A program made the translations under genes and the position numbers. Below the pieces are notes generated by a model. It made no database searches. It was not told where the DNA came from and was given only the letters and a program-made list of their open reading frames with translations. A DNA stretch of 64,000 nucleotides from Prostheceraeus crozeri (Eukaryota > Platyhelminthes > Polycladida > Euryleptidae): positions 344,090 through 408,089 of the forward strand of contig CAJQUW010000891.1 of the NCBI GenBank assembly GCA_907163375.1, given 5' to 3'. Below, piece after piece: positions 1,880-42,057 of this stretch (its first letter is position 1; every line of letters starts with the position of its first letter).

Positions 1880-2050
1880 TCAACACCACCTTGGAATGCA
1901 GTGACCACAAACAAACGTTGTAGTATACTTGTAGCAGTAGCCACAGTACCATAGATTGCAGACTGTACACTTGGACCAATCCGGTCCATCATAATTAATG
2001 TAGTCGCAGTCGCATGATGAACATGCTTCATCATTTCCACTCGCTTCTTT
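1880..2050 (-). CDS. terminal exon with Cys-rich zinc-binding domain
   Basis: Acceptor ATTTTTTACAG precedes 2050 and a TGA stop lies at 1880-1882. The 56 residues contain CSSC-x-C, then DWSKCTVCNLWYCGYC, then CGHC and a final WC. The spacing C-x2-C ... W-x2-C-x2-C-x2-W-Y-C-x2-C ... C-x2-C resembles PHD or RING-like zinc folds found at the ends of several transposase families, which bind histone tails or partner proteins. The aromatic before the third Cys pair is typical of PHD fingers. It is not a textbook PHD, since the usual His position is replaced. Confidence 0.65.
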   Translation of the reverse strand, partial: KEASGNDEACSSCDCDYINYDGPDWSKCTVCNLWYCGYCYKYTTTFVCGHCIPRWC

Positions 2051-5000
2051 CTGTAAAAAATTTCAATAAGTTAAGGATGAGACAAAAAAATAAGTAAAGA
2101 TATCAATTTAGACTGAAATAATCTGAATAAATTATCACTTTGATTAATTGAAGCAAATATTCATATTCGATCGAAAATTACTGATATGGCTGATACCCTA
2201 CACATTTGACAAAAAATTGAGAGGAAAAATACAAGTATACAAATTTAACTCTGGCCGCACCTGTTCTTCCGAAGACGCCCACATCAAAAGGGCTTTGGTA
2301 CTCAATCTCCGACATCTTCGTAACTTGCATCTTGGTGGCGTAATCTGCTAAATAAAAGATGACACAATTAATTAGCTAATTAAAATAAATATTCTTTCAT
2401 TACTCATACATTTTCATGCTTTAGAATTCTGGAAATATCAATTTTCTTCTTCGTCAAGCTACTACTCTCCTGAAATGACCTGCCAGCTACGGATACCTTT
2501 TGGATAATTGAATTCCTTAACCATTTTGCCACAAAATATTACATAGCAGTTAAAGTATGACTTAAGTTGTCATCAAAACATAAAACTCCGACATTTACGT
2601 GTTTCGTTTCAATGACTGATGCAACAGAGTTTAATGAATAGACTAATAAAATTTGACTCATGTATCTCTGCTCATAAAAACAGGTCTTTATTCTGCATAT
2701 AAAACCTAGATAATTGTGTTCTTCAATGTATAAGAAATAGAAGTCCATGAAACAAGTCATGATGTTTAAGAAGCCTAAATATGTCTAGAAGAAAAATTTC
2801 CTCTGTTAGAAGATAGGCGAAATGAGTAAGCGTAAGCGCTTAATATGAATGACATTCGACTACATTTTTTCTTCAAACGCGTCTGTAGTTTGTTTACAGC
2901 CTTACTTAAAATCTACTTCGTTGTTTTGATTTTACTGTATCATAGATCATCATTTTGCTATAGCAAGACCTATTTTGGCTATGTATGATCTCCACAACGA
3001 AGCCATAAACGATGCATTTAAGATATTTTGTGATGAAATATAAATGTCGCTCAATAAAATCGAATCGGGTATACCAAAAAATTACGTTTCATTAGCATTA
3101 CTTCAACCCTAATATAAAAGACTATAGATAATAAGACTATACCGACCGATCACATAATGCAATTGTGGGCATGCAATTCTAGGTTCCGAATTCGGCGACG
3201 ATGAGGTCGAATATCGACAAAATGTCTCGAACATGGAAATCCAATGTAAAATCGATTTTTGTTTTTAGATATGTGCATATTACAATATCTCTGTATCCAA
3301 TCAATTCCAAAGATATCTTCGGAAGGTTCAAATGCCGTTATCTTATCTATTACTACGATAATGTTAATACGCAAAGTGTCTCAAATGCAGTCAACTAAAA
3401 ACTCACTTCAGTATTCCTTGGTTCATGATTACTTTCTTCCGGGATTGATGCCACCATCTGTAAAAGAGAGCAGACTATTTGGTTAACCTACCCGGAGTTA
3501 CTATGAGCATGTTGGCAACAATACAAAATACTTTACAACTGTAAACTTACCTCAGCTTTGTTTGGTTCACTATCAAGTTCTTCCGGAATTGATGCCACCA
3601 TCTGTAAAAGAGAGCAGACTATTTGGTTAACATATCCTGGAGTCACTATGAGCATGTTGGCAACAATACAAAATACTTTACAACTGTAAACTTACCTCAG
3701 CTTTGTTTGGTTCACTATCAAGTTCTTCCGGGATTGATGCCACCATCTGTAAAAGAGAGCAGACTATTTGGTTAACATATCCCGGAGTCACTATGAGCAT
3801 GTTGGCAACAATACAAAATACTTTACAACTGTAAACTTACCTCAGCTGTGCTTGGTTCACTATCAAGTTCTTCCGGAATTGATGCCACCATCTGTAAAAA
3901 AAGACCAGACTATTTGGTTAACATATCCTGGAGTCACCATGAGCATGTTAACAACAATACAAAATACTTTACAACTGTAAACTTACCTCAGCTTTGTTTG
4001 GTTCACTATCAAGTTCTTCCGGAATTGATGTCACCATCTGTGAAAGAGAGCAGACTATTTGGTTAACCTACCCGGAGTCACTATGAGCATGTTAACAACA
4101 ATACAAAATACCTGACAACTGTAAACTTACCTCAGCTTTGTTTGGTTCACTATCAAGTTCTTTCGGGATTGATGCCACCATCTGTAAAAAAAAGACCAGA
4201 CTATTTGGTTAACCTACCTGGAGTCACTATGAGCATGTTGGCAACAATACAAAATACCTGACAACTGTAAACTTACCTCAGCTTTGTTTGGTTCACTATC
4301 AAGTTCTTCCGGAATTGATGCCACCATCTGTAAAAGAGAGCAGACTATTTGGTTAACCTACCCGGAGTTACTATGAGCATGTTGGCAACAATACAAAATA
4401 CTTTACAACTGTAAACTTACCTCAGCTTTGCTTGGTTCACTATCAAGTTCTTCCGGGATTGATGCCCTCACCTGTGAAGGGATAGTTTCAGTTAATGGTT
4501 CATATGAAAGACAGATATTACACCGGAATTTTACATGAAAATGTAAGTTATTATAATCATGGAATATGTCAATCAATTTGAATTAAAAACCATCATAACT
4601 GGAACCCGAAAACTGCGTATTCTATTATACTTGCACATATGTCAAGTTCTTTAGAGAATATCGAATGAATTCTAGGTAAGTTGACTGTCCTTGGAAAAGC
4701 AATTTTTCGAGGATCAAACGAGCTACCCCTCTAACATGCTTACCGTCGATGAACATTTGGTTATGAATTTATGTATTAACAGTAAAAGTAATCGTTCTGG
4801 TATAGGCACATTAGGGTATATTTCAACAGCATTTATGTACCAACGTGTGACGGAAACTTACTTCATCATTCAGTATAATTGTGTCACCGTCTTCACTTTC
4901 AGTTTCCATCTGTAAGAAGTAAAAAAATCTTTCATTGGGTAACCTACTAATAATTGATCGTCTTCAGAGTCCTGTCACGTATCAGTTCAAATGATTACCT

Positions 5001-8000
5001 CATTTTCGACATAACCAGCAACTTGCTTCACCAAAGAGCTGCCTGCTGCGGCAAGGCGGGAAGTCGTCGCTTGATAACTCTGTCGAGCTACTTGAGGCCT
5101 ATGCCCCAACCGATCATTCAGTGCTATTTGCGCATCCGTCGACAAGTTTTCCTTCCCCTGAAATATGACAGAAGCAGAATGCCATTATCAATATGTATAA
5201 ACGCTTTTGCATTTGAGAATCAATAAAGCCCTAACTCTTTAAAGGATATTCACGTCGAGACATCTCTCCTAAATTGTAGGATAGCTAGCAATATTTCATC
5301 TTTTTTAAAAATACGTGGAAATCACAACAATTAAATAGGTAAACATAATGACCGACACAAAATTTAAAGAAATGGCGGGCCCCAAAAAAATAAGGCAAGC
5401 AGATCATTACTTCATTTCGTTGAAGTGAGGATGACCATCGATGACGACTGAAAGGCCTTGCTTGTAAATAAAAACGTAAATAGAATTAGAATAATAATAT
5501 GGCAATAGTACATGAGCATCTTGGTAAACACAAATATGGAATCGAAAGGAAATTGTTCACAAATCGAGATTCAGTAGTCAATGAATATAGTGACACTCAT
5601 GAATTTCTTAATATATTTCTGAGAAATCTGCGCTAATGATAGAAATATCTACAGTAAACGGAGGAAAATGATCGATGCGCTATAATTTGCTTGAATTTCA
5701 TGCGATTTCGGTTTGGTTCGCGGACGTGATGTCCCTACCAGTGTCCCGGCCAGGGAGTTTCGTCCAATTTCATCAGAATTAAGATTTATCATACCTGCAC
5801 GACTCTCATTGTGAAACTTACACTAAAATATCTTACTGTTTGTCTACTTTCACTTGAATCATGAATCATGCAAATTTCATCATAAAATACAATGCAGTGG
5901 AATATTGTCTATTTTTATCAATGGTAAAAAGCTTAATTGTGAATTCTGATCTGAAATAAGAATTTATGCGTAAGCGATGTGCAAATTTACGCGCGTTGCT
6001 TCCAATTTACGCTCAAAATGTTAGATTTACGCGCTGGCCGGGACACTGGTCCCTATACTCCAGGTGAACATACGATAAACATAAGTTAGCACAAATCGTA
6101 ATCTTCGTAAAAGAAATGGACTTCAACTTGACTCAACAAACAAACACGCTAAACAATCAAAAACGCAAAATTATGCCGCCATGAAACAGCATCTATAACA
6201 GATTGAAATAAATATTTGAATTATCGTAGATTCTTACCCTAGTCTCGATGTAATGGCGGTATTTGGTATGCGTAATATTTTGAATTCCATAACGAAGACG
6301 AATTTTGCGCCACGCAGTACTGAAGTCATGCGATCCTCGTTCCCCAAATGTGAATAGCGGTGGTGAATCGTCGTTGAATTGTCTCGATTCGCCTCTTCTC
6401 GCAAGTAACGCATATGGATGACATGGTATATTTCGACTGTGTTCTTGTTCATAACTTCTGACCCTATCATTTCCAAACTGAAGAAGTATGCTCGCTGAAT
6501 CACTATCAATGGTAACCCATTGGGCTCCATATAAATGCGCTGTCTTGTGTTTATGCACTCTGAATTGAGGCGTCGAATTTTGTCCATTCGTCAGTTCCGT
6601 TTTCCACCCAATGAATTCAGCCAAAGTCGCATTCGATGCTACATCAGGTCGATTACTATTGCCGGGTCCGAAACAAAAAATAGAAGCAAGAAATATTGAC
6701 ATGGAGAACGAATCTTTTGCTTCTTCTCTCAACTGGTCCATCACTTTTTGAAGACTTTGAATATCCTCGTTTGTCAGTAGCGTGTCATCCAACTCATTCT
6801 GAAATATGTCCAAAAGATAAAATCAGTTATGATCAGAGGGGTGCAGTTTAACTATTAATACTCCGGTTTTGATACTCGGAAGCTTGAATACATTTATTAG
6901 GAATTTTTGCGTAACATTTGTACCGAGTGGCCCAAAAATGCCCCATACAGTCATATAAAACAGAAACTGATAAAAAAAAATTGTAAATCATTACAACTCT
7001 GTTATTTATATAACAAATTATTGCAAAACGCCAGTTAGTTTCACGACAGTCTACATGTAGTATATTAGTGAAAGTCAGGTCTAGTGAGAGTAACTTAGTT
7101 TCATTGGGTTTAGGATCATTGAGAGGATACGCTTGATCTGTCACGTACTAACTCACAGTATCAAACACACTGTGCTGACACACACATACACAGTTACACA
7201 CTATGATTGGCCTCACAGTTAATTGTTAGAATATAGGAGAACTTAACTTCTTCATTCAGTCTGATCACAAACTTCGTGGAATTGTTGTCCACAATGAACG
7301 ACAAAGCAAAGGCTGCTAATTTCTACAAACCAACTGAATTTCACACACAATGCTTTTGCAACGGTGGTCATGAATAGGGTTCAAAAGTACACTGCTTGTA
7401 ATAAAACATTATCTTAAATATATAGGCGGGATGATTGTAATATTTGCTTATTTCGAGACAGGTGGCGGATAGTTGATTTGTAATTTCCATTTAATGTAAA
7501 CAGATAAATTACAGCTCAGGGTACTCTTATTATGTCTGTTACAACCGTCCATGGCGTTAACAACTCATTTAGTAGGAATTACACTTTAAAAAATGTCATA
7601 GAATGATAATACTCAAAGAAACAATTAAAACAACAAAAGCATCATGTTTTTTTTGTTTCAAAACATTTTAAAAAAATTTGGTTTTTTTTCAACTCTGGTC
7701 ATGAATGGAGACCGCGTAGGAGCGAGAGACGATCGTTGCGGGGAGAAAGAGTACAAGAACCGGAGAACCGGATGCGAGAGGACATTACTAACAGCTTCTT
7801 GTTCTTTAGATGTAATAAGCTGGCATAGTGTGCTCAAACATCAACTTTCTGCTCCGCAAAAATATAGAAATATTATATACATGTAATATAATGAATTTGT
7901 AGTTTTCATTATAGGATATTTGTAATTTTTCACATCCAATCAGTTAAACCGTATGGAATATTGCTGTTTTAACCTGTAGCTCATGTGTTGTCAAATTGTA

Positions 8001-11000
8001 GAACCCATATAACTATTCTAATGCTGCTCGTGTAAGATATGTTCAATAACTTGATCATTCCATGTTGACCTCGATTAATAATCCTGACCTCGATCTCGAA
8101 CTCGACCTCGAATGGAATTTAATTGAGTTTGCATCTCTGATTATAATATGTTCAATTTGAACTCAGCTGTCGTTCTATTTACCATCAGCAGTTTTCATTG
8201 AGTGTATGTTACACATATTATAAAATGGTAACTCACTCTTAACTTGACATTAGTTTTCTTCTTGTTCGCCGAGTTGCTTCGGTTCCATAACTGTAGTTGT
8301 TGTTCCAATGATTTCAGTTCCGATTCCAGATTTAATTCGCTAACGACTGACATCTTATTGCATTGTATATGTCGGTGTAGTAGGGCCAGGGCTCCAATCG
8401 TTGCAGTACAATTACTTGGGGACTTCATAGCAAGATCTTTCAGATATTTTGATATCTTCCAACGATTCTCCGTAGATAGGAGGAATGTCTCCAAATGAAA
8501 AAATTCGTTTGCCTTCATAACTTGCTTGATGTAGCGTACATGCTTGCTAATTGTAGCCTCAGATAGATTCCCGCCGCCCCAATACTTCGCGAATTCCTGT
8601 GAAACAAAATAAGCTAGAAAAACATGCAAAATCATAAAATGTTCATGAAAAAGTTTATACATGTATAATCTGAGATTGATTTGTCAGTGGAGATTGAGAG
8701 TGGGATTAGAACAGGGCACTTCTTTAAGAGAGTGTTTCGGCCGGGATTTTTCCCTTTTTCTGCTACTTTGATATACCTATCACCAGTATAGATATTAAAA
8801 TTACCGGAAAAATTGGAAAAATTACCGGGAAAATTGAAAAATAGCTTAGTCTTCTCTCTTTCTCGCTATTCGACACGATAGATCCCTGTTGGTTATACTT
8901 CTTTTTCGTATCTTCCCGTAAGGTCTAAAAGCTAAATCATACGTATGTTGGCTTTTATTTAGGACTTTATAATTAAGTGAGATACATGAAAATATTGGTT
9001 AATTACGATAAATCTTAATTCTACTCTTAAATCTAAACAAAAAGTAGAACCTTCTTATTCCTAGGCTATACCTTACCACAGTCTCGTGATATCTCTTATT
9101 ATAGACAACAGGAGGATTATATATAGCTTGTTCGATGATTGTTACATCAAGTTAACAATTAATTGAATATAAGGCCTCTAGAGACTATAATAGCCTACAT
9201 TATATATAGCATGTATCATATAGATGGAAAATATTGAACAGGTCTTTTATCATCCTTACGTTTTGATCACAACCCTATGAAAATAATCATTATATATTTG
9301 CAAAGAATAGGGATCAAATAGGGATATGCATTGGGCAGCTGTCAGCTGATTAACTTCAGCTGACATGCCAGTCCACGTACGTTCAGACCATATGCCTCAT
9401 TATAACGATATGATGACAGCTATGTTTTGAGGGCGTCAATGGCAAATTAGAGGGCCGCGTTAGCGGCCCGACAATTTGCCATTGACAGCCCGAAAAATGT
9501 AGATGTCATAATCATTGTATGCCATGTTGCGAAATATTTCTATGGTTTCATTTCCAGGCCATGAATTCATATCCATGAATTCCGGGCCGTTAATGAATTT
9601 CTGGGCATTATCAAAGATATCAGTCTTATATACATGGTATACAATAAGTCTTAATGTCGATCGGGAAAAATTAGGCTATAAAGTTCTGTTATCCCTCGAT
9701 GTAAGGAACTTTTTTCGGACGCGAATCCAAAACATTGTTTGATTGTCGAATAAGCTTCGATCAAGATAATCTTCCGTATATTACAAATTTACAATTAGAC
9801 AAGAAGAAATGCTTAGTTAGACGTCACTATACAATCTAAAGATATCCGAAAATTCGGATACCCGAGTGGAACAAAAAGTCAACCCGAATCCGACCCGTTT
9901 GTTACCATTAACCATGCATGACAAGGGATTAAACTATATCAGACAATATGCGACTCGAGAAGTAGTTGAATCTTCAGACAGAGAACATATATCATTGGAA
10001 ACATCACAGCGCTATCTAACTGGTAGGTCTTCTTCACGCAATTTCGATCAATAATCATCATCCCAACTTTGCTGACTCAACAATACGGCTTGTATTTTGG
10101 GAGTCGAGTCAAATTATGTCTAACAGTTAATGAATAGAAATCTAGTCAGCATGCATTTCTGTACTTGTGACCTATTTCACGCAATTTCGATCGATATAGT
10201 CATCGAAAGATGAACACACAGTGAGATCGTTATGTGTTTCGTTGAGGTTCTATGAATTCAACAAAAGTGAATATCTTAAATCATTGCACAAACCGAAAAA
10301 GCTGTTTTATCTCTTGCTAATTCTCATCAAATTTAACTGTATGCTCATTTACTTGATTACTAAACTTATTCACTTGGTCAGCTAAGACACTTACATTGCA
10401 CAGTAGTACTTGGTGCATGAAACTGTGTGGTCTGTCTAATTAAATGAAGTAATTAGAAGTTTATTTACTACTTCATAATGATCATATCATAAATGATCCA
10501 GTTATAACTGCCCCGTCTCTTGTCACTCATCATGAGTTGCTAAAAATCTTGTCGATTCACACGGACGCCACTGCCAGCGCAGCGACTAAATCGTGACAGA
10601 TAGATGTTTGTGAATAGGTGGTGACTGGTGAGCCAAACTTTCCTGCGCGGAGATCAAGGATTTTAATTATATAATATTTGATGTAGATCAGAACCGTCAC
10701 TCATTACAACAAATGATTTTCGAGTTTCACTACTTCGAATCAATATATTTTGTAATTCTCACATTAGTTTATATAATTACATTTCTGATTATAATCGAGT
10801 CATGGATTTTTATTTGACAATGTGAATTTTTCTCCAATGTGTCAGAATGATTAATGTAGATGCCACCGCATTAAAAAAGCAATATAGTTTGTTTACAAAT
10901 GTACAAGTATGACCTCACTATTAGAAACAATGATCTCGAAAACAATGCAGTAATCATTATTATCTATTAAATTATTAATAATTGCTAATTTTCAGCATAT

Positions 11001-13334
11001 ACAGTGATTCGTAGGCATCGACTGGCTAACAAATCTGTTCATTGTCATCATCGTGGATAAAGTATTCCATATGATTGGCAAAGAATCGTCATCATTCCAT
11101 TACTCAAAGGCAATGGCGAGTGTATTTAAGTATCTCGTATCATAAGTTTTGTTACCATTAACCATGCATGACAAGGGATTAAACTATATCAGACAATATG
11201 CGACTCGAGAAGTAGTTGAATCTTCAGACAGAGAACATATATCATTGGAAACATCACAGCGCTATCTAACTGGTAGGTCTTCTTCACGCAATTTCGATCA
11301 ATAATCATCATCCCAACTTTGCTGACTCAACAATACGGCTTGTATTTTGGGAGTCGAGTCAAATTATGTCTAACAGTTAATGAATAGAAATCTAGTCAGC
11401 ATGCATTTCTGTACTTGTGACCTATTTCACGCAATTTCGATCGATATAGTCATCGAAAGATGAACACACAGTGAGATCGTTATGTGTTTCGTTGAGGTTC
11501 TATGAATTCAACAAAAGTGAATATCTTAAATCATTGCACAAACCGAAAAAGCTGTTTTATCTCTTGCTAATTCTCATCAAATTTAACTGTATGCTCATTT
11601 ACTTGATTACTAAACTTATTCACTTGGTCAGCTAAGACACTTACATTGCACAGTAGTACTTGGTGCAAGAAACTGTGTGGTCTGTCTAATTAAATGAAGT
11701 GATTAGAAGTTTATTTACTACTTCATAATGATCATATCATAAATGATCCAGTTATAACTGCCCCGTCTCTTGTCACTCATCATGAGTTGCTAAAAATCTT
11801 GTCGATTCACACGGACGCCACTGCCAGCGCAGCGACTAAATCGTGACAGATAGATGTTTGTGAATAGGTGGTGACTGGTGAGCCAAACTTTCCAGCGTGG
11901 AGATCAAGGATTTTAAATTTTCTGACCTCAACCGATGGAAATGATGACTCACCAAATGACTGAAAATGGGTACGATGGAAATTTGAAGAATCTTGAGTAG
12001 GCATTGCAATCTCGAGGTCATTTCTTCAATCTCGAGATTTCAGAAATCCCAATCTCGATATCTCCGAGTCGTGAATGATCTTTGAAGTACATTTCATGCA
12101 AACAGTATTCAATTAGTGTTGTATTGGAATTTGTTCAAAAATAGGGGGACCTGCTTATCAAAAAATTCTAAAAGTTATACATTTAAAATTCTCAATTACC
12201 TTCAACTCAACAAATTGTTCCTCCGGCTCCATATCCTTCGAACGTTCCAACAGAATGACCGTTTTGGCTTTCTCCACTGATAATGGAGGGTCACGTAGGC
12301 CTACCTCACTTCTGGATCTATTATGCAATCGCCTGAGATGTTTCGTCAAATGCTTTTTCCGCTGAGGCGAGTTGCAAACAGGACATGACACATAATTCGG
12401 AATGTCGCATTTACGAATAGTGTACTCCTTTATCTCATTGATGAATTCTGACAAAGACGTTTCAGCGTTTGAGCGCAGAAAATCTTTATGCACCCTCTTC
12501 AAATGTTCGGACAGTCTGCTTTCAGTGATCACATGAATGCCACCAAGCCTTGCTCGTTCTAAAGGACAAAGATATGTCCTTCCCTTCTTTTTCACTATTT
12601 CAGAAACGGAAGAGTCATTCCACTTTTCATCATCACTGTCTACTCCCTGGACACTAGCGCCTAAAAGAAAAGCAACAATTAATATTCAGATTATTAAGTA
12701 TATGATAAACAATCAGAAATAGAGGCAATTTAGAGAAAATTCCCTTTTACACAGTCCATGAATCAAGTCTAATGCAAATGACAAAACATGAACAATTCTG
12801 AAAGTGAAATATGATGAATGCATTGAACAGTTACTTTCCTCCACTAACTTTCGCCTTGCAAACATTCCAATATCAGATAAGTACAATTTAAATTTATGAC
12901 AGCAAAAGCAATGACCAGTCATAGATTTGTGTTTATATCATCACTGCATTATGCGTATTTATCTAGTATAATGTGGAAAAGGAGAAAATTTAATATTATA
13001 ATATTTTTCTCAGAATATGAGTTTCAGAAAGTATAAGAATAAATCAGGATTTCTCAAACCCTGTGCAATTACCCAAAGTTGGATAAAACCGAAAAATCCT
13101 CTAACTAAACTACTATTATCAGTGGAGATTTTTCAGTTCAACGTAGCAAAGTGCGTCAAGGTAACAAAGTTAAAAAAACAAGCTAATGACTAGTTAATTT
13201 TCAATAGGTACAAAGTATGATTTAAAAGAAAATTTTTATATCCTAAAATGTCTAAAAATTTTAAAAATACTTACTAGAAGGACAAACAACGCTTCTCCTC
13301 TCCTCATGTGTAATGAATTGGCGAGTAAGTCGTT
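1880..13334 (-). CDS. multi-exon zinc-finger / tyrosine recombinase gene (gene-level model)
   Basis: Exons, in transcript order: 13275-13334, 12200-12660, 8237-8596, 6238-6798, 4999-5157, 4862-4909, eight of 51 nt between 4471 and 3407, 2410-2469, 2261-2344 and 1880-2050. All have AG acceptors and GT donors, and reading frame is kept throughout. Counting from 12660, the product is about 769 residues: zinc fingers 1-153, core-binding segment 154-273, catalytic domain 274-513, acidic linker 514-665, basic segment 666-713, Cys-rich end 714-769. Order and spacing of Arg, Lys, Arg-His, LGH and Tyr match eukaryotic tyrosine recombinases of the Crypton-like broad group, which cut and rejoin DNA through a 3'-phosphotyrosine. 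The N-terminus is incomplete: no in-frame ATG lies in the first exon listed. Whether this is a mobile element, a domesticated gene or one of a family cannot be told from one locus. No flanking terminal repeats were recognised. Confidence 0.72.
2261..2344 (-). CDS. penultimate exon, basic, of recombinase gene
   Basis: Acceptor TTTTATTTAGCAG precedes 2344. The donor GTGCGG after 2261 is weaker than the others. The 28 codons read ITPPRCKLRRCRRLSTKALL then MWASSEEQ, a basic stretch with a TPP turn. Another frame of the same DNA is also open, but it does not connect to either neighbour at phase 0, so I prefer this one. Confidence 0.58.
2410..2469 (-). CDS. small basic exon of recombinase gene
   Basis: Acceptor GGTCATTTCAG, donor GTATGA, 20 codons, phase 0 both ends: ESSSLTKKKIDISRILKHEN. 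The run KKK and the following Arg and Lys residues could be part of a nuclear localisation signal, which is inference. The next intron is only 65 bp (2345-2409). It supports the model that this exon, found from splice signals, falls in the phase shared by its neighbours. Confidence 0.58.
3407..3457 (-). CDS. microexon 8 of 8, divergent (MVASIPEESNHEPRNTE)
   Basis: The first eight codons match the consensus, and the rest has diverged to SNHEPRNTE while keeping length, frame and the EP pair. Its donor is GTGAGT instead of GTAAGT. As the terminal copy it escapes unequal exchange more often, which would explain the divergence. Confidence 0.7.
3551..3601 (-). CDS. microexon 7 of 8 (MVASIPEELDSEPNKAE)
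   Basis: Consensus peptide, differing from copy 6 only by a synonymous Ile codon. Confidence 0.75.
3696..3746 (-). CDS. microexon 6 of 8 (MVASIPEELDSEPNKAE)
   Basis: Consensus peptide; splice sites as in copy 2. Confidence 0.75.
3841..3891 (-). CDS. microexon 5 of 8 (MVASIPEELDSEPSTAE)
   Basis: Asn14-Lys15 are replaced by Ser-Thr, adding two possible phosphorylation sites. Acceptor TCTTTTTTTACAG and donor GTAAGT. Confidence 0.73.
3987..4037 (-). CDS. microexon 4 of 8 (MVTSIPEELDSEPNKAE)
   Basis: Ala3 is replaced by Thr. The acceptor reads CTCTCTTTCACAG, one base different from its neighbours, and remains a good site. Confidence 0.73.
4131..4181 (-). CDS. microexon 3 of 8 (MVASIPKELDSEPNKAE)
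   Basis: Glu7 of the consensus is replaced by Lys (codon AAA). The acceptor tract is longer here (TCTTTTTTTTACAG). Confidence 0.73.
4277..4327 (-). CDS. microexon 2 of 8 (MVASIPEELDSEPNKAE)
   Basis: It has the consensus peptide, acceptor CTCTTTTACAG and donor GTAAGT. The 93-bp intron upstream is full of sequence shared with the other units. Confidence 0.75.
4421..4471 (-). CDS. microexon 1 of 8 (VRASIPEELDSEPSKAE)
   Basis: Acceptor CCTTCACAG, donor GTAAGT, 17 codons, phase 0. This is the only copy that does not start with Met (Val-Arg in place of Met-Val). The 390-bp intron upstream is the longest in the local cluster. Confidence 0.72.
4862..4909 (-). CDS. small acidic exon METESEDGDTIILNDE
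   Basis: Acceptor TTTTTTTACTTCTTACAG and donor GTAAGT are both near-ideal. The 48-nt exon is phase 0 on both ends and encodes METESEDGDTIILNDE. The intron separating it from the catalytic exon is only 89 bp. Like the microexons downstream it opens with ATG straight after the acceptor and is strongly acidic, so it may be a distant member of the same exon family. Confidence 0.65.
4999..5157 (-). CDS. catalytic-domain exon 2 (LGH and nucleophile Tyr)
   Basis: Acceptor TCATATTTCAG precedes 5157 and donor GTAATC follows 4999. The 53 codons are phase 0 on both sides. They contain DRLGHRPQVARQSY: His19 followed nine residues later by Tyr28, the His-to-Tyr spacing of the tyrosine recombinase active site. 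Tyr28 is therefore the proposed nucleophile. The rest (ATTSRLAAAGSSLVKQVAGY) looks like the C-terminal helix that packs beside the active site. Splicing from 6238 to 5157 places 24 residues between the box-II Arg and this His, close to the usual distance. Confidence 0.82.
5158..6237 (-). other. intron between the two catalytic exons
   Basis: A 1080-bp intron splits the recombinase active site. It contains a hAT-type MITE (5739-6048). A possible acceptor-bounded segment near 5403-5443 was considered and rejected. Confidence 0.65.
5739..6048. mobile_element. hAT-type MITE, 310 bp
   Basis: Termini CAGTGTCCCGGCCAG (5739-5753) and its exact inverse at 6034-6048 form a 15-bp perfect inverted repeat starting with CAG. 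They are flanked by 8-bp GTCCCTAC (5731-5738) and GTCCCTAT (6049-6056), a target duplication with one mismatch. An 8-bp duplication with CAG ends is the signature of hAT elements. The interior has no ORF, so it is non-autonomous. Confidence 0.8.
6238..6798 (-). CDS. catalytic-domain exon 1 of tyrosine recombinase
   Basis: Acceptor CATATTTCAG precedes 6798 and donor GTAAGA follows 6238. It has 187 codons, phase 0 both ends. Exon residue 50, in GNSNRPDVASNATLAEF, sits where the first catalytic Arg lies in this superfamily. Lys83 or Lys85 (RVHKHKTAHLYG) is in position for the beta-hairpin Lys. R181-H182 in THTKYRHYIETR matches the second Arg box; residue -3 is Thr rather than His, as I recall for animal members of this group, so I do not count it as damage. 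The exon ends directly after that box and the next supplies the His and Tyr. The ORF stays open into the intron, so length alone would misplace its end. Confidence 0.82.
6799..8236 (-). other. intron; nothing else recognised
   Basis: AT-rich sequence with no supportable gene on either strand. The minus ORF 6848-7144 has no family features and no splice context. A short run of TCGA-rich repeats (CTCGATCTCGAACTCGACC) lies near 8070-8115. Confidence 0.45.
8237..8596 (-). CDS. core-binding (SAM-like) exon of tyrosine recombinase
   Basis: Acceptor TTTGTTTCACAG precedes 8596 and donor GTGAGT follows 8237. The exon has exactly 120 codons and is phase 0 on both sides. It begins EFAKYWGGGNLSEATISKHV and continues as a run of amphipathic helices ending in a Lys-rich segment (NKKKTNVKLR). 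Position immediately N-terminal to the catalytic domain, the GGG-LSE-TISKHVRYI pattern and helical character fit the N-terminal core-binding domain of tyrosine recombinases, which clamps DNA opposite the catalytic domain. Assignment rests on position and general resemblance, as this domain has no invariant residues. Confidence 0.72.
9431..9491. repeat. composite inverted repeat (61-bp hairpin)
   Basis: Outer arms GGGCGTCAATGGCAAATT (9431-9448) and AATTTGCCATTGACAGCCC (9473-9491) pair with one indel. Inside them GGGCCGC (9452-9458) pairs with GCGGCCC (9463-9469) around a GTTA loop. The result is a nearly continuous two-storey hairpin. Confidence 0.7.
9898..10666. repeat. 769-bp direct repeat, copy 1
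   Basis: It matches 11148-11916 base for base at a constant offset of 1250 bp with about four substitutions and no indels, so the duplication is recent. The plus strand has a reading frame ending NYIRQYATREVVESSDREHI and running to a GTAGGT that could act as a donor. I have no family for it. Confidence 0.88.
11148..11916. repeat. 769-bp direct repeat, copy 2
   Basis: Second copy of the 9898-10666 repeat. Differences seen include TGCAAG for TGCATG, GTGATT for GTAATT, and two changes near the right end. Confidence 0.88.
12200..12660 (-). CDS. C2H2 zinc-finger exon of recombinase gene
   Basis: Acceptor CTTTTAG precedes 12660 and donor GTAATT follows 12200. The exon carries two bases of a split codon and then 153 codons ending in VELK at phase 0. 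Residues 92-112 form a finger with C92, C95, H107 and H112 (CPVC...KHLRRLH). A looser one upstream has C31 and HLKRVH at 52-57 but lacks the second Cys. The first 20 residues are acidic and Ser-rich. C2H2 fingers would supply DNA binding or targeting; that role is inferred. No Met precedes the fingers in frame; the first in-frame ATG of the open frame is codon 143, downstream of them, so the true start lies in an earlier exon. Confidence 0.75.
13275..13334 (-). CDS. upstream exon of recombinase gene (phase 1 to phase 1)
   Basis: The donor is strong (GTAAGT at 13274-13269). The acceptor AG at 13335-13336 has only a mediocre pyrimidine tract. The frame that fits the next exon reads RLTRQFITHEERRSVVCPS, and a Ser codon is then split across the intron (A|GC). 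The 60-nt exon is symmetric, phase 1 on both sides. An in-frame stop lies just upstream and there is no ATG, so at least one earlier exon is required. Because it begins with AA, an upstream exon cannot end with a lone T, which would create a stop. Confidence 0.5.
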
Positions 13335-19677: not shown

Positions 19678-19922
19678 AAAAAATATTTTTACATTTTAAC
19701 ATGAATTTCTGTATTTTCTGAATTGATCGAGATCCGATTTGTCTTATTGTTATAGTTAGATTGATTTTGATTTGTACCTTATTTGACGGATATCTTTGCC
19801 ATGAATATTGCACGTCTTTTGTTAATTGCTTCATGTGTTACGATATCAATCAGTGAAGTTCATTCAGCACGCATTCATTAAGAAATCCGTGTCAACGATG
19901 GTTCTTTGTTCTATCAGTTTTC

Positions 19923-20975
19923 ATGATGGATGTGACAAGCGTGTCTTCAGTCGAATATCGCAGTGTGATACGATACCTCCTGATCCGCGGCTTCGCTAAT
20001 GGTGACATTCTAAAGGAATTAAGCCTGGCATATGGAAGCAAAGCTCCATCGAGAACTACTGCTTATTTCTGGATAAGCGAATTTAAACGCGGAAGACAAT
20101 CTGTGGAGCAAGATTTTTCAACTGTTGGTCGGCCGCAGGAGATTCCGGAAGAGAAATCGAGTCAGTGCGATGAAGTGATTACAGCACACAGAAGGATAAC
20201 CATCCGTGAGTTGTCAAGAGAGTTGTGAATCAGTTATCACTCCTGTCATGACATCATCGAGAGACTTGGATATCGCAAACTGGCATCACGTTTCGTACCG
20301 AAGTTTCTGTCACCTGAAATGAAGGAGAACAGACTTCTGGCGGCACAGTCAAATTTGGATCTCCTCGAAATGCACGGAGATCAGTTTCTGAACTGCATCC
20401 TTACAGAGGATGAAACATTAAGTTTGTATCTGCCTCAAAGTAAGCGAGAATCTGCAGAGTGGCGAAAATCAGGCGAGTCTGCCCCTTTGAAAATGCGATC
20501 CGGAACATCACATCGCCGGTCGTTGATGCTGACGGTCTTTTGGAACGCTTCGGGAATCCAACTGGTTGACTTTGCGGATAAAGGAGTAAGAATCAATAGC
20601 GAATATTATTCCAATCTGTTATCTGAAGCGAGGAAGAAAATAAGAAAGCCACGAAACATTCCCCTCTACTTGCTTCATGACAATGCTCCGATTCACACCT
20701 CGCAGGAGACAACCAATGCCTTAACGAGAAACGGATTTCAACTATTGAGCCATCCTCCTTATTCACCTGACTTGGCCCCAAGTGACTTCTATCTGTTTAG
20801 ATTCCTCAAAAAGCATCTTCGTGGACACCATTTTGAATCGCCAGTTGAATTGCGGGATGCAGTTACTGAGTTTTTTGATTCTTTGACACCGGAATTTTTT
20901 CATAAAGCTTTTTGTGAATTGAGACTTCGTTGGCAAAAAGTGACGAATGCTAACGGCTCATACATTGAAAAGTAA
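19923..20975 (+). pseudogene. mariner transposase, one nonsense codon
   Basis: The frame is 350 codons, full length for mariner, interrupted only by TGA at 20226-20228. The N-terminal half has the paired helix-turn-helix region with the GRP hinge (VGRPQEIPEE). The catalytic triad is D in LTEDETLSLY, D in LLHDNAPIHTS and D in DLAPSDFYLF, with 34 residues between the last two (DD34D). The enzyme would cut and paste the element at TA sites. The stop lies in the second helix-turn-helix, before the whole catalytic domain, so no active product is expected. No other damage was noticed, which suggests recent inactivation. Confidence 0.9.
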
Positions 20976-33095: not shown

Positions 33096-34421
33096 AGGGG
33101 AAAATTTTGAAAATTTTCCAAAATGTGTCATTTCGACCTGGGACCTTCACCAAAACATTTTTCATCAAATTTCACTGACCTCCCCCCCCTCGGGAGAACA
33201 AGCTTCTAACTTTGGTTCTAGTGAACGGATTTTGTCTTACAGCTACTCGTTTGAAAGAGGAGAAAAAACTGCTCGACGCCATTTTTGCCGCGAGTCAATC
33301 GGACCAGCCGTTCAAAAGTTAGAGCTGTTGCAAGATTTTAGGTCGGAGCTCACCTGAAAAAATCCTAAGTGTCAGAGTGGCTTTGTATGGGGAAAATTTT
33401 GAAAATTTTCCAAAGTGTGGCATTTCGACCTGGGACCTTCACCAAAACATTTTTCATCAAATTTCTCGTACCCCCCCCCCCCGACAGCAATCTTCTAACT
33501 TTGGTTCTAGTGGACGGATTTTGTCTTACAGCTACTCGTTTGAAAGAGGAGAAAAAACTGCTCGACGCCATTTTTGCCGCGAGTCAATCGGACCAGCCGT
33601 TCAAAAGTTAGAGCTGTTACAAGATTTTAGGTCGGAGCTCACCTGAAAAAATCCTAAGTGTCAGAGTGGCTTTGTATGGGTAAAATTTTGAAAATTTTCC
33701 AAAGTGTGGCATTTCGACCTGGGACCTTCACCAAAACATTTTTCATCAAATTTCACTGACCTCCCCCCCCTCGGGAGAACAAGCTTCGATCTTGGCTTCC
33801 AGTGGACGGATTTTGTCGTGCAATAGCTCGTTTGAAAGCTAAGAGTGAGACAAATTCACTGAAAGAATCGGCTTGTTCATATCTGTCTCCGTTTAGATGT
33901 GAGGCGCCATTCAAGATTTTAGGTCGTAGCTCACCTGAAAAAATCCTAAGTGTCAGAGTGGCTTTGTATGGGGAAAATTTTGAAAATTTTCCAAAGTGTG
34001 GAATTTTGACCTGGGACCTTCACCAAAACATTTTTCATCAAATTTCTCGTACCCCCCCCCCCCCCGACAGCAATCTTCTAACTTTGGTTCTAGTGAACGG
34101 ATTTTGTCTTACAGCTACTCGTTTGAAAGAGGAGAAAAAACTGCTCGACGCCATTTTTGCCGCGAGTCAATCGGACCAGCCGTTCAAAAGTTAGAGCTGT
34201 TACAAGATTTTAGGTCGGAGCTCACCTGAAAAAATCCTAAGTGTCAGAGTGGCTTTGTATGGGGAAAATTTTCCAAAGTGTGTCATTTCGACCTGGGACC
34301 TTCACCAAAACATTTTTCATCAAATTTCTCGGACCTCCCCCCCCCGACAGCAATCTTCTAACTTTAGTTCTAGTGAACGGATTTTGTCTTACAGCTACTC
34401 GTTTGAAAGAGGAGAAAAAAC
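33096..34421. repeat. 290-bp satellite, left segment
   Basis: Four to five units of about 290 bp, cut off on the right by the copia element. The unit contains GGGGAAAATTTTGAAAATTT, GACCTGGGACCTTCACC, a poly-C run and AATCTTCTAACTTTGGTTC. The unit at about 33680-33940 is a divergent type that matches variants at the far end of the array. Frames of 65-90 codons are open on both strands of many units, but they are shifted by the poly-C length and are not taken as genes. Confidence 0.93.
34417..34421. repeat. target-site duplication AAAAC, left
   Basis: Same five bases as 39379-39383 on the other side of the copia element. Confidence 0.85.
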
Positions 34422-34775
34422 TGTTGTTGTAGCGCAGGTTAAAAAGCAAAACAATGCGAATAACTTTAATTGTATTTGAGTCAGATGTATAGTTGGCAAA
34501 GATACAGACGTGATAACAGCACGTGATAAGTGGGTTGTGTTTGAAAAGTTTCTGACACATTACATTTATACCGAGAGGATGCATGTTCACTAAAACAACT
34601 TTTGCATTAGCCAATACAACACAGCGCTGCAGAATAAACTGACACTTCACGATACGATACAATTATAGCGATATCAAACATGGGAAGTTACTTACTAACT
34701 TATTCAGTAGTACCAATAATTATGCCAACTTATACAGGGAACAAAAGAATATTTGAGTGCCATCTACACTCAACA
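34422..34775 (-). repeat. copia 3' LTR
   Basis: 354 bp starting TGTTGTTGTAGCG and ending CACTCAACA on the plus strand. No poly-A signal or promoter box could be assigned with confidence. Confidence 0.95.
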
Positions 34776-34804: not shown

Positions 34805-37800
34805 TTATATTTCATTAATTGTACAAAGACCAAGAGAATTACGCAATCTCAAAAAGGTGTCTTTTGGAAGTGGCTTTGTAAAAATGTCTGCTGTCATTTC
34901 TTGCGACGAACAGTACTCAAGTTTTATTACACGATTTTCAATACAATCACGAGTGTAATGATACCTCAAAGCAATGTGCTTTACTTTAGGATTTTCACCA
35001 GGACTTGCCAAAGCAATGGCGATCGCTGCTTTATTGTCTTCATAGACAATCGTAGGTTCCGTTTGAGGACAATTAAGGTCAGTAAATAAACGACGAGTCC
35101 ACACTATCTTCTTCGCAGCTTCACACAATGAAACGTATTCTGCCTCAGCAGTAGAAAGAGCGGTAATAGACTGTTTCTGACACAACCAAGAAATTGGACA
35201 TTTACCATTAAACAAAACATGGCCAGAAGTGGACTTGCGATCTTGCAAATCACCGGCAAAGTCGGCGTCACAAAAAACAACAATAATATTGCCAATACAC
35301 TCCTTCTCAAACTTGATTCCAAGTTTTAAAGTACCTTTCAGGTAGGACAAGACACGTTTCACAGCTTTCCAATGAACTTCACTGGGATCTTTAGAAAACT
35401 GAGCCAACTTGTGAACAGCAAAACACAAATCAGGTCTAGTAAAATTACTCAAATACAAAAGACAACCGATTGCTGACTGGTAAATAAAAGGATCAAATTC
35501 CTTGTCACCTTCAGTGCGCTTCACAAGTACACTACCCGCTTCCATGGGAGTAGAAACAGGAAAAGAATCATCCATGCGAAACTTTTTCACAACGTTTTCA
35601 GCGTATCTATCTTGCACAAGTAGAATAGAATTTGGGTGATGCACAATACGCACTCCGAGAAAATATCGCAAAGGCCCAATATACTTAACATCAAAACGGT
35701 CAAGAAATAATTTATGTGCATGTTTGATAACATTTTCGGACGTCGCTGCTAAAATCATGTCGTCAACATAAACAGCCAACATAACACGTTCGCTATCAAT
35801 GATACCTTCATAAACACAAGGATCATTCTCAGAGCAGTTCAGTCCCATGTCCAGTAACTGATCTTTCAAAACAAAATTCCAACACCTTGGAGACTGTTTC
35901 AACCCATACAACGAACAACTCAATTTGCACACAAGATTTTCTTTTCCCTCGACAATGTAACCCTCAGGTTGTTTCATAAATATTGTCTCATCTAACTTGC
36001 CATTAAGAAACGCAGTTTCAACATCAAATTGGTGCAATAACATCCCACGATTTACGGCAATAGAAATTAAACATCTAATGCTGTCATGACGTACAACAGG
36101 AGCAAAGGTCTCTAAATAATCAGTTCCGTATTTCTGAGAAAAACCTTTAGCAACAAGTCTAGCCTTAAAACGACAAGCTTCACCAGATTCGTCTGTCTTC
36201 GTTCTAAAAACCCAACGATTACTAACAACATTTCGTCCAGCAGGCAATTCACACAAAGTCCAAGCATTGTGACGCATTAGTGAATTATATTCTTTATCAG
36301 CTGCATCTTTCCACTTATTTTTAAGTTGAGAATTCATAGCATCCTCCCATGACTTAGGGTCATCAACACAAAATTCTTCGGCAGAGAACGCATCAAAACC
36401 ATAGCGTTCTGGAGGAATAGAAAAAGTGGAACGAGACGAGCGCCGGGTTTCTGTGGCAGACTCGGGTACATCAGGACCGCTCAGCATCTCAGAATTAATT
36501 TCAGAACTTTCAAGCGTTGGCTCACTGTCTCGAGTATCAGATATTACTCGAAAAATGCCAGGATCAGTGTCAACAGGGTCTGTACTAGATTCAGTCAACC
36601 GCCTTGCGGGAAATTTCACACGACCCATTGTGACCTCATCGAACACCACATCACAGCGTTCAATAACCTTTTGGCGTTCAACATGCCATAAACGATAGCC
36701 TTTCGAGGCCGGGCTGTAACCCAAAAATATACATTGATCTGCCTTAGCATCAAACTTACGCCGCTGATTAGATGGGATGTGAGCAAAGGCTACACAGCCG
36801 AAAACACGCAAATGACGAACAGACGGCTTACGACCAAAAAATGCTTCGTAAGGGGTCATACCAGTACTTAATGCACGAGTTGGGCATCTATTTCGTACAT
36901 AACAGGCAGTACAAACTGCCTCCGCCCAAAAAGACTTTGGTAAATTACATGCACAGAGTAGGGTTCTCGCTCGTTCAACTAGGGTGCGATTCATGCGCTC
37001 AGCTACGCCATTTTGTGGTTTTGCCTCAGGAATAGCTAACTCACGACGAATTCCTCGTTCTTCTAGAAAAGAAGAAAATTCACGAGACAAAAATTCGCCA
37101 CCGCAATCTGACCTCAATGCCTTTACTTTTCTCTCCTTCTGAGTCTCTAACTCAGTCACGAGCTTTTTGAAGGCTGAAAAACTGTCAGACTTATTTGCTA
37201 AAAAACGCACCCAACAATAACGAGTACAGTCGTCGACTATAACCATTACAAAACGACGACCCCCAAGTGACGTTACTTCCATTGGACCCATCAGATCCAC
37301 GTGTAACAAATCTAACAAACCATCAGCACGAGTACCAGATTCCTTTGGAAAGGGTAACGTATGGCTTTTACCCTTAGCACAATCATCACAAAATGCTTTG
37401 TCGTTACGATCATCACTAATACTCAAATCACTTACAGCAGCACTAGTTAGTAAATTTCGCAATGATGACTGATTTATGTGCGCAAAACGTTTATGCCATG
37501 TTTCAAATGAGACTGAAAAACATTCGGTTTTCACATCATGTACAATAGAATCACAATTATCAGCATCATTTATGTAAACTTTCGAATGAAGTGAGCAATC
37601 AACTTTATACAATTTATCGAACAACTTTCCAGATAAAACAGTATTACCCGTTTTATTCAAAACTTTCATACCGCCACTATCAAACAAAATTGAGTAACCA
37701 CGTTTTGTCGTTTGGGAAACTGACATTAACGTACATCGCAGTTCAGGTACATATAGACAATTGACCAGTTTGATAATTTTGTCTTGACCATCATCAGTTT

Positions 37801-38881
37801 TGATAACCATTTTGACAGAACCTGAACCAACAGCTTTGAGCCGATCTTTATTTCCTAACTGAACAAAATTACGAGAATCAACCTCAAAGGGCTGATAATC
37901 ATCATCAAAAGACTCAAAAACTGGTGACATATGTCTAGTAGCACCCGAATCTGCTAAAACGGTAGAAAGATCACATTTCACATCAGGTGTGAATAAACAC
38001 TCAGCAAGAAGAAAGGAAGAATCACTCTCATGCTGTACTGTGACCGCAGAATCGGGTTTTCTTCGAGGACACACACCCGCTCTGTGACCAAGTTCTTTGC
38101 ACTTGAAACACCGCACAAATTTTGAATGATTACTGATACACTGCTGCGACGTCGAATTACCGCGACGGTTCCAATTCGATCGTTGACGTTGATTGAATTT
38201 CACATTGAGCGCTTGACTATCATGATTTTCAGGAGCTGGAATTTTCTGCTTCGATGAACCATTCATTCGATACCAATCAGCTGCTTTTTGCATCAGGAGA
38301 GACATGTTTAAGTCCTTACCAAGAACAAAGTTCATCATGTTCTTAAATTCTTTCCAAGATGGTGGAAGCGAATTTAAAGTCTCGATGCACTGTTCCATCT
38401 CGTCGATGGGATTACCACTCATCGCATATTGTTGATATAGTCTCAGACGTTCCTTTAACCACTTCTCCGGGTCAGTGCGATCCTTCAAAACAAGAGAATC
38501 AAGCTGCGCACGAACAGAAACGCGATGGCTGTGAGTCTGCGTTTGAAAATGAGTGACGAGATCAACCCATAACTTTCTAGGGTCATCAGGAAAACCATCC
38601 CACAAATAAAACAGTTCACCACTAATTCCAGTGACGAGAATCTTGATGGCTCTCTTCACTTTATCGTTGAACGTAGAAATCTGTTTTTCTCTGACTCTGA
38701 CATCAGCCGCATTTGACCCGTCAGCAAGAAGGGCAATGGGCAACGGCTTCTTCTCGGTACCAGTGCCAACTACTTCCCATAAGTCGTCCGCCAATAGAAG
38801 GGCTTGCATATGCATTTTCCATCCTCGCCAAGACTCGAATCTGTCTTTGAGTAAGGGTAATTTCGCCGATGTTGCCTCCAT
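34805..38881 (-). CDS. copia Gag-Pol polyprotein, intact, 1358 aa
   Basis: One frame encodes all functions in copia order (integrase before reverse transcriptase). Gag is at about 1-250; a zinc knuckle CFKCKELGHRAGVC is at 258-271, binding RNA. The aspartic protease is marked by DSGA at 311-314. The HHCC zinc site of integrase includes H463, H468, C498 and C501. Integrase catalytic residues are D529, D592 and E628. Reverse transcriptase has FDVETAFLNG (951-961) and YVDD at 1038-1041. RNase H residues include D1205, E1247 and D1282, followed by the DIFTKPLP block (1332-1339). No stop or frameshift is present, and all key residues are in place. Gag and Pol in one frame without a shift is usual for copia, where Gag excess comes by splicing. 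Confidence 0.97.
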   Translation of the reverse strand: MEATSAKLPLLKDRFESWRGWKMHMQALLLADDLWEVVGTGTEKKPLPIALLADGSNAADVRVREKQISTFNDKVKRAIKILVTGISGELFYLWDGFPDDPRKLWVDLVTHFQTQTHSHRVSVRAQLDSLVLKDRTDPEKWLKERLRLYQQYAMSGNPIDEMEQCIETLNSLPPSWKEFKNMMNFVLGKDLNMSLLMQKAADWYRMNGSSKQKIPAPENHDSQALNVKFNQRQRSNWNRRGNSTSQQCISNHSKFVRCFKCKELGHRAGVCPRRKPDSAVTVQHESDSSFLLAECLFTPDVKCDLSTVLADSGATRHMSPVFESFDDDYQPFEVDSRNFVQLGNKDRLKAVGSGSVKMVIKTDDGQDKIIKLVNCLYVPELRCTLMSVSQTTKRGYSILFDSGGMKVLNKTGNTVLSGKLFDKLYKVDCSLHSKVYINDADNCDSIVHDVKTECFSVSFETWHKRFAHINQSSLRNLLTSAAVSDLSISDDRNDKAFCDDCAKGKSHTLPFPKESGTRADGLLDLLHVDLMGPMEVTSLGGRRFVMVIVDDCTRYCWVRFLANKSDSFSAFKKLVTELETQKERKVKALRSDCGGEFLSREFSSFLEERGIRRELAIPEAKPQNGVAERMNRTLVERARTLLCACNLPKSFWAEAVCTACYVRNRCPTRALSTGMTPYEAFFGRKPSVRHLRVFGCVAFAHIPSNQRRKFDAKADQCIFLGYSPASKGYRLWHVERQKVIERCDVVFDEVTMGRVKFPARRLTESSTDPVDTDPGIFRVISDTRDSEPTLESSEINSEMLSGPDVPESATETRRSSRSTFSIPPERYGFDAFSAEEFCVDDPKSWEDAMNSQLKNKWKDAADKEYNSLMRHNAWTLCELPAGRNVVSNRWVFRTKTDESGEACRFKARLVAKGFSQKYGTDYLETFAPVVRHDSIRCLISIAVNRGMLLHQFDVETAFLNGKLDETIFMKQPEGYIVEGKENLVCKLSCSLYGLKQSPRCWNFVLKDQLLDMGLNCSENDPCVYEGIIDSERVMLAVYVDDMILAATSENVIKHAHKLFLDRFDVKYIGPLRYFLGVRIVHHPNSILLVQDRYAENVVKKFRMDDSFPVSTPMEAGSVLVKRTEGDKEFDPFIYQSAIGCLLYLSNFTRPDLCFAVHKLAQFSKDPSEVHWKAVKRVLSYLKGTLKLGIKFEKECIGNIIVVFCDADFAGDLQDRKSTSGHVLFNGKCPISWLCQKQSITALSTAEAEYVSLCEAAKKIVWTRRLFTDLNCPQTEPTIVYEDNKAAIAIALASPGENPKVKHIALRYHYTRDCIENRVIKLEYCSSQEMTADIFTKPLPKDTFLRLRNSLGLCTINEI

Positions 38882-39010
38882 TACTACACTGAATCCACAG
38901 CTGGAGACACCAAGGTCACAACGACGAACGCGAGGTAAAATTCAATGTCAGATGCACGACGACAATAATGAGTTACAGTTATTCACAATAACACGGAGTT
39001 GAGACGTTTT

Positions 39011-39378: not shown

Positions 39379-39383
39379 AAAAC
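39379..39383. repeat. target-site duplication AAAAC, right
   Basis: Matches 34417-34421. Confidence 0.85.
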
Positions 39384-42021: not shown

Positions 42022-42057
42022 CCCTAGATGCCCGTTTTTGGATAAAACATGCATGAT
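42022..42057. repeat. left 36-bp terminal inverted repeat
   Basis: Perfect inverse of 47855-47890, extending into ACATGCATGAT. Confidence 0.92.

What the first reader, a model, noticed from the sequence alone, without database searches (positions are those of the whole stretch)
3407..4471. Array of eight tandem, splice-competent 51-nt microexons
Seen directly: eight units at 144-146 bp spacing, each with its own acceptor, a 17-codon phase-0 open exon and its own donor. None has decayed. Because each cassette is symmetric, any number can be included or skipped without shifting frame, giving an acidic linker of 0-136 residues between the recombinase and its C-terminal domains. A length-tunable linker made from a satellite-like exon array in a recombinase gene is not something I know to be described. 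Unequal exchange could also change copy number between individuals.
Basis: partly seen in the sequence, partly recalled or inferred. Interest (0 to 1): 0.88.

Follow-up and report, generated by a model that had tools for sequence, protein, structure and literature searches.

The report
Tandem array of eight repeated exons
A gene of an unidentified organism, probably an animal, that loosely resembles a DNA recombinase carries eight nearly identical tiny exons in a row; the array is real and looks usable, but repeated-exon arrays are a known kind and nothing here shows that its length is tuned by splicing.

Summary
On the minus strand, 4471-3407, eight 51-nt segments lie at 144-146 bp spacing. 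Each has an acceptor, an open phase-0 17-codon frame and a donor. At the strength of the array's sites, no other symmetric open 30-150 nt segment occurs in 46.8 kb of the rest of the window, both strands. The eight other predicted exons are multiples of three too.
The evidence offered for function is weak. The units are young and homogenised; without selection all eight would stay intact with probability 0.47 (19 changes) to 0.30 (30 changes). Exon and intron parts vary at the same rate (8/51 versus 11/93 sites, p 0.61), and 1 of 8 exon changes is silent. Better evidence comes from older copies: the diverged unit 8, and a 48-nt exon (4909-4862) that is probably an ancient copy, are both still open and spliceable.
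Best reading: a symmetric exon multiplied by unequal exchange. If transcribed, most copies are probably spliced in, giving an acidic linker of up to 136 residues. Skipping, tuning and copy-number variation are untested.
The architecture is not new (Schistosoma, Tetrahymena, titin). "Recombinase" rests on motifs read by eye; Pfam, PDB and PHROGs gave no support.

The parts
4421..4471 (-). array exon 1 (VRASIPEELDSEPSKAE); left edge, three of its first five bases differ from the other units
4277..4327 (-). array exon 2 (MVASIPEELDSEPNKAE)
4131..4181 (-). array exon 3 (MVASIPKELDSEPNKAE)
3987..4037 (-). array exon 4 (MVTSIPEELDSEPNKAE)
3841..3891 (-). array exon 5 (MVASIPEELDSEPSTAE)
3696..3746 (-). 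array exon 6 (MVASIPEELDSEPNKAE)
3551..3601 (-). array exon 7, identical in DNA to exon 2
3407..3457 (-). array exon 8 (MVASIPEESNHEPRNTE); right edge, last 27 nt 17/27 identical to exon 7, donor GTGAGT
3458..4420 (-). span holding the seven array introns (93-95 nt each, between the exons listed), with GTTAACCAAATAG (possible branch point) in all seven
4862..4909 (-). 48-nt phase-0 exon (METESEDGDTIILNDE), probably an old diverged copy of the same unit
   Evidence: local alignment score 18 versus shuffle mean 9.8, p 0.007 uncorrected, lowest of 6 regions tried; 4 of 2066 real 171-nt stretches, at two loci, score as high or higher; open, acceptor 10/12, donor 7/9
4999..5157 (-). predicted exon with LGHRPQVARQSYQ, candidate end of the recombinase-like domain with its tyrosine
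   Evidence: motif reading by eye
6238..6798 (-). predicted 187-aa exon, recombinase-like core (NRPDV, HKHKTAHLYG, THTKYRHYIET)
   Evidence: open frame; no Pfam, PDB or PHROGs support
8237..8596 (-). predicted 120-aa exon upstream of the core
   Evidence: open frame, acceptor and donor
12200..12646 (-). predicted 149-aa exon with a C2H2-like motif (CPVC..HLRRLH); its acceptor is uncertain
   Evidence: weak zf-Di19 E 0.009, below cut-off, on the ORF holding it
2410..2469 (-). predicted 20-aa exon after the array
2261..2344 (-). predicted 28-aa exon
1880..2050 (-). predicted last exon with stop, Cys-rich (zinc-binding-like by eye)
   Evidence: no Pfam family

Best explanation
A small symmetric exon of a recombinase-like gene with a zinc-finger-like exon was duplicated together with its intron and multiplied by unequal exchange to eight copies that have been homogenised (sequence-based, well supported). 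If the gene is transcribed, the spliceosome probably joins most or all copies, because the sites are strong and the introns short, giving an acidic, probably disordered, repeat linker of up to 136 residues between the recombinase-like part and a Cys-rich C-terminus (inferred). The amino acid sequence looks weakly constrained; frame, splice sites and perhaps overall length matter more (inferred). Length would change mainly by copy number between alleles; skipping would cause no frameshift but is not shown.
For: 8 of 8 units open, symmetric and flanked by AG and GT. 0 comparable segments in 46.8 kb outside the array on both strands. The eight other predicted exons are also multiples of 3 and join in phase 0 (the first one's acceptor is uncertain). 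Length differences lie only in introns. The diverged unit 8 stays open with a donor (neutral expectation 0.31 for open and GT, 0.13 with donor >=7/9) and so does the likely ancient 48-nt copy (0.025 for open, AG, GT, pyrimidine tract and donor >=6/9, before any penalty for indels). Homogenisation: introns 1 and 7 identical over 93 nt, exons 2 and 7 identical, a 290-bp period that outscores 144, divergence strongest in exon 8 and the 3' flank.
Against: Exon and intron parts vary equally (p 0.61) and 1 of 8 exon changes is silent, as under neutrality. Intactness of all eight is not surprising without selection. The kinship of the 48-nt exon is only moderately supported: exon alone p 0.087, preceding intron without its splice tail p 0.045, or 0.30 by global alignment with both ends trimmed; and since its splice ends helped to recognise it, the 0.025 is partly circular. 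Two places in a dispersed repeat align with the unit better than it does. No transcript, relative, second allele or species is known. The left flank shows no significant kinship to the array introns (p 0.15).
Confidence: 0.6

Rival explanations
1. Intronic minisatellite: an exon or exon-like segment was caught in a tandem repeat that expanded neutrally; the copies are rarely or never used in mRNA and look intact only because they are young.
For: Equal variation in exon and intron parts, mostly amino-acid-changing substitutions, neutral probability 0.47-0.30 of eight intact units at 19-30 changes. The window is rich in tandem repeats.
Against: A random unit would seldom hold a strong symmetric open exon (0 in 46.8 kb at that strength). 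The diverged unit 8 and the 48-nt exon remain open and spliceable.
Confidence: 0.27
2. Regulated cassette array: cells choose how many copies to include, tuning the linker length.
For: Every copy is symmetric and phase 0, so any subset keeps frame.
Against: No expression data; sites are uniformly strong and near-identical, leaving little to distinguish copies; the fold of one 290-nt stretch is not unusual (z -1.38). The other predicted exons of the gene are symmetric too, so symmetry is not special to the array.
Confidence: 0.1
3. Assembly artefact: the true copy number differs, or the array is a misassembly.
For: No reads or second assembly could be examined; short tandem arrays are prone to collapse or expansion (general knowledge).
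Against: Several units carry private substitutions or T-tract lengths, and the right edge is diverged, which a simple duplicated-read artefact would not produce.
Confidence: 0.03

Closest known systems
Schistosoma tandemly repeated exons encoding 81-base repeats (Davis et al. 1988) and micro-exon genes
   Same: Tandemly repeated short exons (by the 1988 title); micro-exon genes are mostly made of small symmetric exons with alternative splicing (PMC4350168 and PMC10526429, passages seen). The 1988 paper is known here only by its title in a reference list; it is not held.
   Different: Micro-exon genes encode secreted proteins and have mostly 15-bp exons with introns of 100 to almost 5000 bp; here exons are 51 nt, introns 93-95 nt, and the gene has DNA-binding-like motifs by eye.
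Tetrahymena LRR genes with tandem arrays of exactly 90-bp exons (PMC6564038, passages seen)
   Same: Exons of one fixed length multiplied with their introns, with unequal crossing over proposed; one dominant intron phase; 1 to 51 copies per gene in T. thermophila.
   Different: Phase 2, leucine-rich repeats, thousands of genes; here one gene seen, phase 0, acidic linker-like peptide.
Titin PEVK exon repeats (PMC6469411, passages seen)
   Same: Many repeated exons coding for an extensible region whose length and exon structure change in evolution, with exon duplication and loss proposed.
   Different: About a hundred exons (113 annotated in human), part of a muscle spring protein.
Variable internal tandem repeats in human segmental-duplication genes (PMC2812944, passages seen)
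   Same: Tandem repeats inside genes that change exon and intron structure and lengthen amino acid repeats, often copy-number variable.
   Different: There repeats lie within exons or at exon-intron boundaries; here each repeat is a whole exon plus intron.
Mutually exclusive tandem exons (PMC9013439, passages seen)
   Same: Tandem exon duplication.
   Different: There only one copy of a group is included; here copies are near-identical, so choosing one would bring little diversity.
Cryptons and DUF3504 genes (PMC3212892, passages seen)
   Same: Animal genes or transposons with a tyrosine-recombinase-like domain, several of them domesticated.
   Different: Animal Cryptons have no C-terminal domain according to that paper; Pfam gave no recombinase or DUF3504 hit here, and the box II histidine seems replaced by threonine.

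Membership tests
Tandem exon array evolving by unequal exchange | head-to-tail exon plus intron units of uniform length | tested here: met
   8 exons of 51 nt, 7 introns of 93-95 nt
Tandem exon array evolving by unequal exchange | homogenised interior, diverged edges | tested here: met
   exons 2-7 share 47-51 of 51 with each other, exon 1 45-47 with exons 2-7, exon 8 39-41 with all others; introns 1 and 7 identical
Tandem exon array evolving by unequal exchange | copies joined in mRNA | not testable with these tools
   no transcripts, genome or relatives available
Tandem exon array evolving by unequal exchange | purifying selection on exon parts relative to introns (expected if used, not strictly defining) | tested here: not met
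   8/51 versus 11/93 variable sites, p 0.61; 1 of 8 silent; low power
Schistosome-type micro-exon gene | most of the coding region in very small symmetric exons with long introns | tested here: not met
   exons of 561, 447 and 360 nt carry 1368 of 2298 predicted coding nt; array introns are 93-95 nt
Mutually exclusive exon cluster | alternative copies with distinct sequences | tested here: not met
   exons 2 and 7 identical, exons 2-7 at most 4 differences between any pair
Tyrosine recombinase (Crypton or DUF3504 type) | significant profile match to the family | tested here: not met
   no recombinase among Pfam, PHROGs or PDB matches; Pfam scanned with single exons and with the joined 360 aa, PDB with one exon and the joined 360 aa, PHROGs with the joined 360 aa
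Tyrosine recombinase (Crypton or DUF3504 type) | catalytic tetrad R-H-R-Y | tested here: inconclusive
   by eye R in NRPDV, R in TKYR, GH and Y in GHRPQVARQSY in order, but T where HxxR has H; AlphaFold model of the 187-aa exon unusable, pLDDT 33

The most novel reading that the evidence does not exclude
A recombinase-derived gene whose acidic linker length is set by an unstable exon array, so that individuals, and perhaps cells through partial skipping, carry proteins with a graded spacing between the DNA-binding or recombinase-like part and the C-terminal Cys-rich part.
Probability: 0.12. Interest if true: 0.7.

Novelty: new member of a known kind. Interest (0 to 1): 0.36.

Why it matters
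If spliced, it would be a clean, compact case of an exon plus intron unit behaving like a minisatellite, useful for asking how splicing copes with near-identical neighbouring exons and how linker length evolves by recombination rather than by point mutation. As it stands it adds an example to a known kind in an unusual gene.

Tried and rejected
Kinship of the array with the 290-bp satellite of the window: rejected (one unit from 47,891 on, score 9 in both orientations). Other copies of the unit or of the gene's exons in the window: none significant by tblastn (nine exon queries, best non-self E 0.27). Relatives elsewhere: none in viral contigs (3 stretches matched a pattern, none confirmed) or genome contigs (27 matched, none confirmed) with the 187-aa exon; none in viral contigs with the exon-donor DNA pattern. 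These collections are of viruses, bacteria and archaea, so this says little about animals. Whole genome: not held. Structure: AlphaFold without an alignment was unusable (pLDDT 33), so no fold search was made. RNA structure: one 290-nt stretch is not unusual (z -1.38, 15 of 200 shuffles as good). No Rfam family at gathering threshold and no tRNA in the window. The bacterial promoter scan is not meaningful in a eukaryote; most of its hits repeat with the unit. Decayed further units in the 390-nt upstream intron or in two downstream stretches: none significant (p 0.61, 0.39, 0.21), nor around the exons at 5157 and 2469 (p 0.97, 0.22). The right flank of unit 8 resembles the array intron over 93 nt (p 0.006), mainly through the donor end (p 0.056 without it).

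Full report
Observation. The region was read on the minus strand and segments of 51 nt between AG and GT that carry the unit's sequence were extracted. Eight units are there exactly as described, at 4471 down to 3407, starts 144-146 bp apart, each open in phase 0. Seven donors read GAG|GTAAGT and the eighth GAA|GTGAGT; all acceptors are CAG. Tandem Repeats Finder reports the same array with a period of 290 scoring above 144. The seven introns are 93-95 nt; the length differences lie in the introns, and the motif GTTAACCAAATAG, a possible branch point (consensus recalled, not from a call), is present in 7 of 7.

Chance. With a donor match of at least 8 of 9 and at least 8 of 12 pyrimidines before the acceptor, 7 of 8 array units pass (unit 8 has a 7 of 9 donor), while 0 open symmetric segments of 30-150 nt pass in 46,798 bases outside the array and the large satellites, on both strands. 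The filter is strict: the gene's own internal exons of 48, 60 and 84 nt do not pass it either. With donor 7 of 9, 11 segments pass outside, 3 on plus and 8 on minus (some share an end); three are predicted exons of this gene or a variant of one (4909-4862, 2344-2261, 2347-2261), and the only one of 45-57 nt is 4909-4862. At looser thresholds pseudo-exons become common (47 and 110 segments). The thresholds were chosen after the array was seen, and the units share one ancestor.

The gene. After a C2H2-like exon (12646-12200, 447 nt) come exons of 360, 561, 159 and 48 nt, the eight array exons, and exons of 60, 84 and 171 nt. These eight non-array exons are multiples of three and join in phase 0; the acceptor of the first is uncertain and the gene's start was not found. 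So symmetry is a property of the exons identified, not of the array alone. The recombinase label rests on motifs read by eye: NRPDV, HKHKTAHLYG, THTKYRHYIET, LGHRPQVARQSY. By memory these resemble a family of animal tyrosine-recombinase-like proteins in which box II histidine is replaced; no call confirms it. Pfam, PDB and PHROGs gave no supporting match (the weak matches listed are to unrelated families), while the same Pfam scan recognised a mariner-like transposase and a Copia-like polyprotein in the window. The AlphaFold model of the 187-aa exon is unusable (pLDDT 33).

Selection within the array. Exons 1-7 vary at 8 of 51 sites and the seven introns have substitutions at 11 of 93 sites (Fisher p 0.61; exons 2-7 alone 5 of 51, p 0.79); mean pairwise difference is 0.054 in exons 1-7, 0.037 in exons 2-7, 0.095 in all eight exons and 0.053 in introns. 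One of eight exon changes is silent, against 24% of random non-stop changes (p 0.69). In a neutral simulation all eight units keep AG, GT and an open frame with probability 0.60, 0.47, 0.30 and 0.11 for 12, 19, 30 and 54 changes. The minimum observed, exon 8 left out, is 19 substituted sites; the mean pairwise difference would suggest about 30 on a star-like history (my arithmetic).

The older copies. Exon 8 is identical to exon 6 in its first 24 nt but matches exon 7 at only 17 of the last 27, yet is open with donor GTGAGT; neutral expectation is 0.31 for open and GT and 0.13 with a donor of 7 of 9. The 48-nt exon 4909-4862 aligns with the unit across the end of the preceding intron and the exon (score 18, shuffles 9.8, sd 1.4, p 0.007 uncorrected, the lowest of six regions tried). 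Among 2066 real 171-nt stretches of the window 4, at two loci, score as high or higher; among 29 pseudo-exons 0 do. The two loci are copies of a dispersed repeat. Exon alone gives p 0.087 and the intron without splice tail p 0.045; a global alignment of the intron is p 0.006 whole but 0.30 with both ends trimmed. So kinship is probable, not proven. If it is kin, its retained frame and sites have a neutral probability of about 0.025 before any penalty for indels, a figure that is partly circular because its splice ends helped to recognise it. The right flank of unit 8 still resembles the array intron (p 0.006; 0.056 without the donor), the left flank of unit 1 does not (p 0.15).

How the array evolved. 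Introns 1 and 7 are identical, exons 2 and 7 are identical, other variants are shared in mosaic, and divergence is strongest in exon 8. This is the pattern expected from repeated unequal exchange or conversion (established knowledge). Copy-number differences between individuals are therefore likely but unseen.

How it works. Shown: sequence competence for splicing and frame neutrality. Inferred: that the gene is transcribed, that most copies are joined, and that the product is a disordered acidic linker (136 residues, 38 acidic, net charge -29). Strong uniform sites and short introns favour inclusion of most copies over regulated choice. One 290-nt stretch of the RNA folds no better than usual (z -1.38).

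What is known. Davis et al. 1988 reported tandemly repeated exons encoding 81-base repeats in Schistosoma (title seen in the reference list of PMC10526429; paper not held). Tetrahymena LRR genes carry arrays of 90-bp exons, 1 to 51 per gene in T. thermophila, with ectopic recombination proposed (PMC6564038, passages). The titin PEVK region varies in exon structure, with exon duplication and loss proposed (PMC6469411, passages). Internal tandem repeats change exon and intron structure of recently duplicated human genes (PMC2812944, passages). Schistosome micro-exon genes use small symmetric exons for protein variation (PMC4350168, PMC10526429, passages). About 10% of animal genes are said to hold tandemly duplicated exons (PMC9013439, passages). 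Paper searches made. None of the titles and abstract openings listed showed a repeated-exon array in a recombinase-like gene, but most lists were capped (for example 30 of 286, 15 of 2785), the library lacks most subscription journals, and the terms were narrow.

Verdict. A real array of spliceable repeated exons, a new member of a known kind in an unusual gene. The tunable-linker claim is open, and the deciding tests are cDNA, genotyping and relatives.

Noticed in passing
window 24424-24384 (-) and 32524-32483 (-): Two copies of a dispersed repeat contain GAAGAGGTAAGTTT..AAGTTGTAA-like sequence that aligns with the array's exon end, donor and intron start (scores 20 and 19.5, above the 48-nt exon's 18). 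The reason for the likeness is unexplained.
   Followed up: partly
window 24944-23073, 32746-31208, 11916-11148, 10666-9898 (-): A dispersed repeat with at least four partial copies; the last two lie 1250 bp apart in one intron of the gene and are 99.5% identical over 769 bp.
   Followed up: partly
window 32785-32762 (-): ATGGCCAAATCTGAAGAAGAAGAG followed by gtaagt, looking like a short first coding exon (MAKSEEEE).
   Followed up: no
window 34805-38941 (-): Copia-like retroelement with one open frame of 1378 codons (Pfam RVT_2, rve, Retrotran_gag_2).
   Followed up: no
window 19857-20975 (+): Mariner-like transposase region: one frame interrupted by a stop codon into 123 and 248 codons; the second part matches Transposase_1 and DDE_3.
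   Followed up: no
window 33097-34423, 39378-42022, 47890-58987: Satellite-like arrays of 289-290 bp period, up to 38 copies, 85-97% matches, on both sides of the Copia-like element; a unit of the largest is not related to the exon array.
   Followed up: partly
window 63169-64000: GTTAGTTTTCA-type 11-bp repeats and a long T-rich stretch at the end of the window.
   Followed up: no
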